NCBI GenBank assembly: GCA_947491305.1
Contig: CANLIL010000005.1
Coordinates: 1-64,000, forward strand
Origin: Flavobacteriales bacterium
Lineage (GTDB): Bacteria > Bacteroidota > Bacteroidia > Flavobacteriales_D > Crocinitomicaceae
DNA length: 64,000 nt
Reading direction: 5' to 3'
Part shown: positions 17,199-17,854 of the stretch, in pieces
How positions within the stretch are numbered: the first letter of the stretch is position 1
Layout: each line of letters opens with the position of its first letter
Position numbers and translations under genes: made by a program
Notes under the pieces: model-generated
What the model was told of the DNA's origin: nothing
Database searches by the model: none
The model's input: the letters and a program-made list of their open reading frames with translations, nothing else

Positions 17199-17251
17199 AA
17201 AAAAAAGTCACCATTTCTGATGACTTTCTTTTTCCTTTGTAGCGGACACGA
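17199..17251 (-). repeat. Degenerate third copy of tRNA-fMet 3' end plus terminator
   Basis: Read on the minus strand, TTCGTGTCCGCTACAAAGG matches the 3' end of the intact initiator tRNA (TCGTGTCCCCGCTACAAAGG) with two bases lost. It is followed by the same hairpin GTCATCAGAAATGGTGAC between A- and T-runs that follows the intact gene at 17741-17776. The rest of the tRNA is gone. This fragment and the copy at 17419-17478 show that the locus was duplicated and decayed. Confidence 0.7.
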
Positions 17252-17383
17252 ATATCCTCCATTTCATTTCGGATGGACATTTTTGGTTTTATTATCAAAG
17301 AAAAGCGCAGCACGTTGCACGTGCTTACTTTTTTACATTCCTATTCGCTTTTAAAAGTAAACTTTCAACGCTTCTAGAAATGC

Positions 17384-17412
17384 AAAAAGCCAGTCATTTC
17401 TAACTAGCTTTT
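17384..17412 (-). terminator. Terminator-like hairpin after the tRNA remnant
   Basis: On the minus strand AAAGCTAGT pairs with ACTGGCTTT around an 8-nt loop, followed by T residues. It lies directly after the tRNA remnant at 17419-17478, where the intact tRNA has its own terminator. Confidence 0.55.
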
Positions 17413-17418
17413 CCTTTG

Positions 17419-17478
17419 TAGCGGGGACACGACTCGAACGTGCGTCCGTCAGCTGACGGATATGAGCCCGACGAGCTC
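17419..17478 (-). pseudogene. tRNA-fMet remnant with anticodon arm disrupted by a palindrome
   Basis: On the minus strand the remnant starts GAGCTCGTCGGGCTCAT, identical to the D-stem end, anticodon stem and anticodon of the intact tRNA. A 16-bp perfect palindrome (TCCGTCAGCTGACGGA, 17445-17460) then replaces the rest of the anticodon arm and variable loop, after which GCACGTTCGAGTCGTGT and CCCCGCTA resume exactly as in the intact tRNA. The acceptor 5' strand and most of the D arm are missing, so it cannot fold as a tRNA. The end of the GIY-YIG reading frame runs into it. Confidence 0.75.
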
Positions 17479-17715
17479 AACTTGTTTCCTGATAAAATCT
17501 CTTCCTCTGCTGGATTTGAGTTGATTTTCACGTTGCATTGCAGTTGATTTTAATTCGTGAAATTCTACATAGACGACTATCCAAGGTCTGAAATTTTTGG
17601 TATACCCTTTCGTTGAATGAATATTATGAGAATAATATCGATCAATTAAATCAGCGGTATAACCAATATAAATCTTATTGTATTTTTTTGAATAAAGTGC
17701 GTAGGTTACATACAT
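17449..17715 (-). CDS. GIY-YIG domain endonuclease-like small protein
   Basis: An 88-aa single-domain GIY-YIG protein. The first strand is YVTYALYSKKYNKIYIGYT (YAL and YIG form the motif), followed by DLIDRYYSHN, an arginine-bearing helix, and a C-terminal ENQLKSSRGRDFI with the family glutamate. Such small proteins are common beside tRNA genes in Bacteroidota; their function is largely unknown, and relatives are UvrC-like or homing nucleases. The last codons (VELVGLISVS, then TGA within the palindrome) are translated from the tRNA remnant, so this C-terminus is probably a by-product of insertion. The intact tRNA and its terminator lie just upstream. Confidence 0.8.
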   Translation of the reverse strand: MYVTYALYSKKYNKIYIGYTADLIDRYYSHNIHSTKGYTKNFRPWIVVYVEFHELKSTAMQRENQLKSSRGRDFIRKQVELVGLISVS

Positions 17716-17740
17716 ATTTTCTAACGTAAATGGGTTTCAT

Positions 17741-17776
17741 AAAAAAAAGTCACCATTTCTGATGACTTTTTTTTTC
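17741..17776 (-). terminator. Terminator of the initiator tRNA gene
   Basis: On the minus strand an A-run, GTCATCA-GAAA-TGGTGAC (7-bp stem with one G-U) and a T-run lie directly after the tRNA 3' end. Flanked by A and T runs, it can act in both directions. A nearly identical hairpin is at 17199-17233. Confidence 0.75.
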
Positions 17777-17781
17777 CTTTG

Positions 17782-17854
17782 TAGCGGGGACACGACTCGA
17801 ACGTGCGACCTTCGGGTTATGAGCCCGACGAGCTACCAACTGCTCCACCCCACA
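17782..17854 (-). tRNA. Initiator tRNA-fMet (CAT)
   Basis: 73 nt, folds as a full cloverleaf: acceptor TGTGGGG with CCCCGCT, D stem GAGC/GCTC, anticodon stem TCGGG/CCCGA with CTCATAA loop, variable AGGTC, T arm GCACG-TTCGAGT-CGTGT, discriminator A. The three G-C pairs next to the anticodon loop and the non-pairing first acceptor position (U1 opposite U72) identify it as initiator rather than elongator. CCA is not encoded; CAAAGG follows. A terminator hairpin lies 5 nt further on. Confidence 0.93.

What the first reader, a model, noticed from the sequence alone, without database searches (positions are those of the whole stretch)
17199..17854. Initiator-tRNA locus with three copies of its 3' end and a GIY-YIG gene between them
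Read 5' to 3' on the minus strand: intact tRNA-fMet, terminator hairpin, GIY-YIG ORF, a tRNA-fMet remnant, a second hairpin, about 130 bp of non-coding DNA, then a third tRNA-3'-end fragment with the same hairpin as the first. Each copy is followed by CAAAGG after the final CGCTA. The nuclease-like ORF ends inside the remnant, so its last residues are tRNA sequence. This looks like repeated insertion at the essential initiator tRNA gene, restoring an intact copy each time, with a GIY-YIG protein as the candidate driver. I know of no description of such an array, but small GIY-YIG genes beside tRNAs are frequent in this phylum.
Basis: partly seen in the sequence, partly recalled or inferred. 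Interest (0 to 1): 0.65.

Follow-up and report, generated by a model that had tools for sequence, protein, structure and literature searches.

The report
tRNA-gene-targeting GIY-YIG selfish elements
A tiny nuclease gene sits between a working initiator-tRNA gene and broken copies of the same tRNA; the same arrangement recurs at more than 20 kinds of tRNA gene across the Bacteroidota, with a short DNA hairpin planted at a fixed place in many of the broken copies, which points to an undescribed family of selfish elements that live on tRNA genes.

Summary
On the minus strand an intact single tRNA-fMet is followed by a terminator, an 88-aa GIY-YIG nuclease ORF, an interrupted tRNA-fMet copy, a second terminator, a spacer and a third tRNA 3' fragment with a copy of the first terminator. 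A syntenic congener has the same tRNA without ORF or fragments. The same genome carries a second such array at tRNA-Val. Across Bacteroidota (61 of 118 sampled genomes) related small GIY-YIG genes lie a median 51 bp from a same-strand tRNA and are followed, or preceded, by a damaged copy of that same tRNA. At least 23 anticodon types are used, and protein sequence predicts the isotype (59 of 62 relatives of the window protein that have a nearby tRNA sit at CAT-anticodon tRNAs). New here: in many damaged copies a defined segment, often exactly the anticodon arm, is replaced by a perfect TCC...GGA palindrome; its position depends on the nuclease clade. In the window the palindrome supplies the ORF's stop codon. 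Best reading: homing-endonuclease-like selfish elements specialised on tRNA genes, whose copy of the target is disabled by a hairpin. Cleavage and mobility are inferred, not shown. Closest known in behaviour: phage T4/T6 SegB.

The parts
17781..17854 (-). intact initiator tRNA-fMet (anticodon CAT)
   Evidence: ARAGORN; Rfam RF00005 58.8 bits
17741..17767 (-). T1, terminator hairpin after the intact tRNA (AGTCATCAGAAATGGTGACTTTTTTTT)
   Evidence: sequence; T1 also follows the tRNA in the empty-site congener G016
17449..17715 (-). 88-aa GIY-YIG nuclease ORF; stop codon TGA (17449-17451) lies inside the palindrome
   Evidence: PF01541 E 1.8e-15; catalytic Y, Y..G, R, H, E invariant in the alignment of relatives; relatives under purifying selection, dN/dS 0.06-0.23
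17461..17478 (-). 5' part of the damaged tRNA-fMet copy (GAGCTCGTCGGGCTCATA; tRNA up to position 37), also coding for the ORF's C-terminus
17445..17460 (-). perfect palindrome TCCGTCAGCTGACGGA replacing tRNA positions 38-47
   Evidence: same position in about 29 Met/Asn-type copies across the phylum
17418..17444 (-). 3' part of the damaged tRNA copy, 27 of 27 identical to the intact tRNA
17384..17411 (-). T2, second terminator hairpin (differs from T1)
17278..17383 (-). non-coding spacer; its 3' part with the third fragment matches several congeners at about 78-86% identity, often without a GIY-YIG ORF beside it
   Evidence: query 743-843 matches in G002, G004, G008, G015, G017
17255..17277 (-). 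imperfect TCC..GGA hairpin in front of the third fragment
   Evidence: weakly folding
17239..17250 (-). third tRNA-fMet 3'-end fragment (CGTGTCCGCTAC)
17199..17225 (-). T1 copy after the third fragment, identical to T1

Best explanation
The locus is one member of a large family of small selfish elements that occupy tRNA genes. Each carries a single-domain GIY-YIG nuclease and a damaged copy of its host tRNA. Proposed mechanism (inferred): the nuclease cuts an element-free allele of its cognate tRNA gene at a clade-specific place (anticodon arm, variable region or T arm), and recombinational repair from an element-bearing chromosome copies the nuclease gene in. The tRNA sequence on both sides acts as homology arms, so one full-length tRNA is left. 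The element's own copy is disabled at that place by a TCC..GGA hairpin. Breaks or unequal exchange between the tandem tRNA pieces then expand and decay the array, giving the three 3' ends here. Shown: layout, recurrence, isotype specificity, clade-specific hairpin position, purifying selection, empty site. Inferred: cleavage, homing, and the role of the hairpin.
For: Synteny with G016 on both sides of the locus, which has tRNA-fMet plus T1 and no ORF or copies. Second array at tRNA-Val in the same genome. Phylum survey: 61 of 118 genomes; among 160 strong GIY-YIG hits, 93 have a same-strand tRNA under 350 bp upstream, none on the opposite strand, 81 of the 93 with a significant same-tRNA remnant; 18 more have the tRNA downstream. 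Protein tree: 50 isotype changes against at least 95 in shuffles; 59 of 62 window-protein relatives with a nearby tRNA are at CAT tRNAs. Remnant matches its own neighbouring tRNA best or tied in 102 of 114. 98 of 165 inserts in remnants are hairpins against 4.75 expected. Hairpin position within one isotype follows protein relatedness, 0 of 2000 permutations. Purifying selection. Precedent: SegB, a GIY-YIG homing endonuclease, cuts inside tRNA genes and causes tandem tRNA-segB amplification (PMC13096335).
Against: No cleavage or mobility data. The intact tRNA-fMet has the same sequence over positions 30-50 in element-bearing and element-free congeners, so the donor's intact tRNA is not protected by a changed site; classic homing needs another form of protection. 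The protein has only the catalytic domain and no separate DNA-binding domain, so the source of specificity is unclear. Association of hairpin position with clade could also come from simple descent of whole elements. No exact before/after pair of the same strain was available; G016 also has 4.8 kb of other DNA downstream.
Confidence: 0.55

Rival explanations
1. The GIY-YIG protein is a structure-specific nuclease acting on the hairpin or on the tRNA gene extruded as cruciform or single-stranded DNA. The hairpin is then a cis-acting site used for transposition or amplification, not a disabled target.
For: Nearest solved structures are UPF0213 and the structure-specific nuclease SLX1; hairpins keep perfect pairing while sequence changes, with invariant outer T-A, C-G, C-G pairs; in many tRNAs exactly one hairpin arm (positions 27-43) is exchanged for another hairpin; the protein is only a catalytic domain.
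Against: Hairpin sits at different tRNA positions in different clades; some elements lack a recognisable hairpin; hairpins of the TCCCGA type also occur away from tRNAs in some genomes.
Confidence: 0.2
2. The nuclease acts on tRNA (RNA), as an anticodon-type nuclease, and the damaged tRNA copy is a decoy or antitoxin RNA.
For: Isotype specificity and the frequent anticodon-arm position of the hairpin.
Against: Most damaged copies lack the 5' half and cannot fold as a tRNA; the window's copy lacks the 5' acceptor strand; GIY-YIG enzymes of known function act on DNA (general knowledge); no defence-family match for the window protein.
Confidence: 0.06
3. Ordinary tandem duplication of a tRNA region in which a resident GIY-YIG gene was captured, vertically inherited with the tRNA locus; no mobility.
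For: Remnants match the local tRNA; arrays look like local amplification (L211, L062); vertical descent alone would link protein clade and isotype.
Against: Patchy presence among congeners, with different isotypes occupied in different species; empty site in a syntenic relative; isotype follows the protein tree more closely than taxonomic family does (50 changes against 66); does not explain the recurrent hairpin.
Confidence: 0.15
4. Classical tRNA-integrating element (tyrosine recombinase island) remnants with an unrelated GIY-YIG passenger.
For: Truncated tRNA 3' ends downstream of an intact tRNA are typical of such integration (general knowledge).
Against: Nothing but a terminator lies between tRNA and ORF in the simple cases, and there is no integrase; the copies include anticodon-arm or longer tRNA sequence with hairpins, not only a 3' att core; the GIY-YIG gene is the constant part.
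Confidence: 0.03

Closest known systems
SegB and other free-standing GIY-YIG homing endonucleases of T-even phages (PMC13096335, PMC2988022)
   Same: GIY-YIG nuclease encoded beside tRNA genes; SegB cuts inside tRNA genes and drives tandem amplification of tRNA plus segB through short homology between the tRNA 5' region and the segB 3' region. Its motif RAWTSGAAC fits the reverse complement of the tRNA T-loop (my inference), where several of our hairpins also sit.
   Different: Here the elements are chromosomal in Bacteroidota (no match in phage records), single-domain of about 80-100 aa, isotype-specific by clade, and flanked by a damaged copy of the target tRNA carrying a hairpin. PMC13096335 found no isotype preference for SegB.
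UPF0213/YhbQ-like small GIY-YIG proteins
   Same: Same fold and size; best solved-structure matches 1zg2 and 1ywl.
   Different: In the same genomes those proteins are mostly not next to tRNA genes; the tRNA-linked clades are distinct.
Integrative elements using tRNA 3' ends (tyrosine recombinases)
   Same: Intact tRNA kept, tRNA 3' end duplicated at the far side.
   Different: No integrase; copies extend into the anticodon arm or beyond and contain hairpins; units of about 300-400 bp in tandem.
Rickettsia palindromic elements and REP-type palindromes
   Same: Short palindromes inserted in genes, including structured RNA genes (from general knowledge).
   Different: In the window's genome TCCCGA..TCGGGA palindromes occur only twice, both in tRNA copies; here they replace fixed tRNA segments beside a nuclease gene.

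Membership tests
GIY-YIG nuclease superfamily | GIY-YIG domain with catalytic Tyr, Tyr-x-Gly, Arg, His, Glu | tested here: met
   PF01541 E 1.8e-15; residues invariant in A1
free-standing homing endonuclease (SegB-like) | gene inserted beside a conserved target and absent from the homologous allele of relatives | tested here: met
   G016 syntenic on both sides, no ORF or copies at its tRNA-fMet
free-standing homing endonuclease (SegB-like) | association with a specific target gene | tested here: met
   isotype follows protein tree; 59 of 62 Met-type
free-standing homing endonuclease (SegB-like) | site-specific DNA cleavage of the element-free allele and copying by break repair | not testable with these tools
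   needs biochemistry and crosses
free-standing homing endonuclease (SegB-like) | element-bearing allele resistant to the nuclease | tested here: inconclusive
   damaged copy is interrupted by a hairpin, but the intact tRNA is unchanged relative to element-free congeners
free-standing homing endonuclease (SegB-like) | DNA-binding region beyond the catalytic domain (usual in phage members) | tested here: not met
   88 aa; Pfam match covers residues 1-70; the tail is tRNA- and palindrome-encoded
tyrosine-recombinase tRNA-integrating element | integrase gene near the tRNA junction | tested here: not met
   no such ORF between the tRNA copies
dispersed palindromic repeat family (REP/RPE-like) | many genomic copies not tied to one kind of site | tested here: not met
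   2 copies of TCCCGA..TCGGGA in the whole genome, both in tRNA copies; other genomes (G005, G185) do have copies elsewhere
known anti-phage defence system | match to a PADLOC model | tested here: not met
   window protein has no match

The most novel reading that the evidence does not exclude
A previously undescribed, phylum-wide class of mobile element that moves by exchanging hairpins of tRNA genes: the nuclease recognises the arms of a tRNA gene as a DNA structure, different clades have specialised on different arms and isotypes, and the element marks its own tRNA copy by swapping that arm for a TCC..GGA palindrome.
Probability: 0.25. Interest if true: 0.9.

Novelty: new variant of a known kind. 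Interest (0 to 1): 0.78.

Why it matters
Small GIY-YIG genes are common in Bacteroidota genomes and have no assigned role. This gives many of them a habitat (a specific tRNA gene), a recognisable unit structure and a testable function. It would be a large natural set of minimal nucleases, sorted by target isotype and by position inside the target, useful for learning how a domain of about 80 residues gains specificity. It also explains a class of tRNA pseudogenes and contig breaks at tRNAs in this phylum, and shows a selfish element exploiting essential single-copy tRNA genes without destroying them.

Tried and rejected
A genome-contig scan with the broad alignment A1 failed for lack of conserved stretches, so a Met-type alignment was used. 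Centring a search on Cloacimonadota or KSB1 genomes failed, so the spread outside Bacteroidota is known only from single loci (L325, L352, L368). Phage records gave no match and plasmid records only weak Neisseria hits on chromosome-sized records. NCBIfam, PADLOC and PHROGs gave no match for the window protein. The idea that the palindromes are a generally dispersed repeat was rejected for the window's genome but holds partly for others. The idea that the damaged copies are functional tRNA-like RNAs was rejected because most lack the 5' half. Literature searches for a description of such elements found none; the library lacks most subscription journals and preprints. No structure prediction was run: sequence comparison already placed the fold.

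Full report
Observation. Read on the minus strand the window contains tRNA-fMet (17854-17781), terminator T1, an 88-codon GIY-YIG ORF (17715-17449), a damaged tRNA-fMet copy (17478-17418), terminator T2, about 130 bp without a gene, a short tRNA 3' fragment and a copy of T1. The ORF runs through tRNA sequence into the palindrome and stops inside it.

Same genome and genus. Of four GIY-YIG hits in the genome, two are in long ORFs of the UvrC or exonuclease type (judged from size only; inferred) and two are small. The second small one lies between an intact tRNA-Val(TAC) and a damaged tRNA-Val whose anticodon arm is replaced by TCCCGATGCATAGCAATCGGGA, followed by two more 3' fragments and a 68-bp repeat of the tRNA end plus terminator. 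The closest congener, G016, is syntenic with the window on both sides (83.6% over 7.9 kb and 87.1% over 3.2 kb). It has tRNA-fMet and T1 but neither ORF nor copies, although 4.8 kb of other DNA lies downstream. Other congeners have empty fMet sites, fragments without an ORF, or elements at other tRNAs: Val, Asn, Asp, Phe, Leu, Met. Presence is patchy. A near relative of the window protein (81% identity) is in a Fluviicola metagenome-assembled genome.

Phylum. With a profile of tRNA-linked proteins, 27 of 40 genomes of the order and 61 of 118 evenly drawn Bacteroidota genomes have matches. Among 160 distinct strong hits (E below 1e-18) in fetched loci, 93 have a same-strand tRNA less than 350 bp upstream and none has one on the opposite strand; 81 of the 93 have a significant copy of that same tRNA after the ORF. 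Another 18 have the intact tRNA directly downstream, often overlapping the ORF's 3' end, with the damaged copy upstream. The median distance from tRNA to domain is 51 bp. By my estimate chance placement would be about 0.2%. Weaker hits, largely UPF0213-like, are mostly not at tRNAs. The profile was built from tRNA-linked members of one genus, so the fraction is not a census of all GIY-YIG proteins. Isolates and complete genomes show the same layout: Flavobacterium dankookense DSM 25687 (L334, a clean minimal case) and the complete chromosome of Marivirga arenosa (L343). Arrays can be long: L211 has eight near-identical units.

Target specificity. On a tree of 128 tRNA-linked proteins the tRNA type changes 50 times against at least 95 in 100 shuffles; taxonomic family changes 66 times against at least 85. 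A scan of GTDB genomes for relatives of the window protein, by protein sequence alone, gave 80 loci. Of the 62 with a same-strand tRNA nearby, 59 have a CAT-anticodon tRNA (initiator or elongator Met, or Ile), two Val and one Asn. The damaged copy is closest, or tied closest, to the tRNA beside it in 102 of 114 cases, so it derives from, or is kept in step with, the local tRNA. The proteins keep the catalytic residues and are under purifying selection (dN/dS 0.06-0.23 in pairs where it could be estimated).

The hairpin. In 165 distinct inserts that interrupt damaged copies, 98 are hairpins against a mean of 4.75 after shuffling. TCC-type hairpins are 13 times denser in the element zone than elsewhere in the same loci. 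They share invariant outer pairs T-A, C-G, C-G; inner pairs change on both sides together. Their place is fixed: positions 38-47 in 29 Met- or Asn-type copies, exactly the anticodon arm (27-43) in Val, Ala, Gln, Pro and Thr, the same arm within a base or two in Lys and Gly(TCC), the T stem in Asp and Gly(GCC), and the T loop in Leu and Ser types. In one isotype, elements with related proteins share the hairpin position and elements with unrelated proteins do not (0 of 2000 permutations). In tRNA-Asn, for example, three clades use three positions. Descent of whole elements contributes to this, so it shows association, not cause. In the window's genome the TCCCGA form occurs only twice, both in tRNA copies; in some other genomes similar palindromes are scattered, once inside the RNase P RNA gene.

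Mechanism. The closest precedent is SegB of T-even phages, a GIY-YIG homing endonuclease that cuts inside tRNA genes and causes tandem tRNA-segB amplification through short homology between tRNA and the end of segB (PMC13096335; PMC2988022). The anatomy here fits a homing-like element: a nuclease gene between two copies of its target, one full-length and one disabled at a clade-specific spot, with tRNA sequence on both sides as homology. The hairpin would be the trace of a destroyed cut site. A serious gap is self-protection: the intact tRNA is identical in element-bearing and element-free congeners over the relevant positions. Possible answers are low expression, a site that needs downstream sequence, or action on extruded structures. 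I give the homing-like model 0.55, a structure-directed variant 0.2, and simple duplication with vertical inheritance 0.15. It works like a homing element; I do not file it as a proven member, because cleavage and transfer are untested and the usual extra DNA-binding region is absent.

Novelty. I found no description of these elements in the searched library, which lacks most subscription journals. The nuclease fold is known and the behaviour resembles a known kind of selfish gene; the tRNA-copy-with-hairpin design, the isotype-sorted clades and the spread across a phylum's chromosomes are new to my knowledge.

Noticed in passing
window 16999-17022: Palindromic repeat TTTACAATATTGCAATGTTGTAAA, with many near-identical copies elsewhere in this genome and in G016, often as pairs about 60-80 bp apart; also found next to the Val array (L001) and in L043.
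   Followed up: no
L287 264-601 (G185:C101): RNase P RNA gene (RF00010) contains a TCCCGACAAGCATGTCGGGA palindrome of the kind found in the tRNA copies.
   Followed up: partly
L185 1361-2570: Array with two intact tRNA-Val genes flanking two GIY-YIG units and further tRNA copies that carry hairpins and repeated promoter-like DNA.
   Followed up: partly
L271 (G000:C32) 316-359: tRNA-Met copy with a hairpin in its D arm, directly upstream of an intact tRNA-Met and without a GIY-YIG gene on the stretch held: a possible non-autonomous form.
   Followed up: partly
L012/L045 (G010:C82): fMet-type GIY-YIG plus hairpin copy without an intact tRNA upstream, only a terminator like that of tRNA-fMet: a possible relocated or decayed element.
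   Followed up: no
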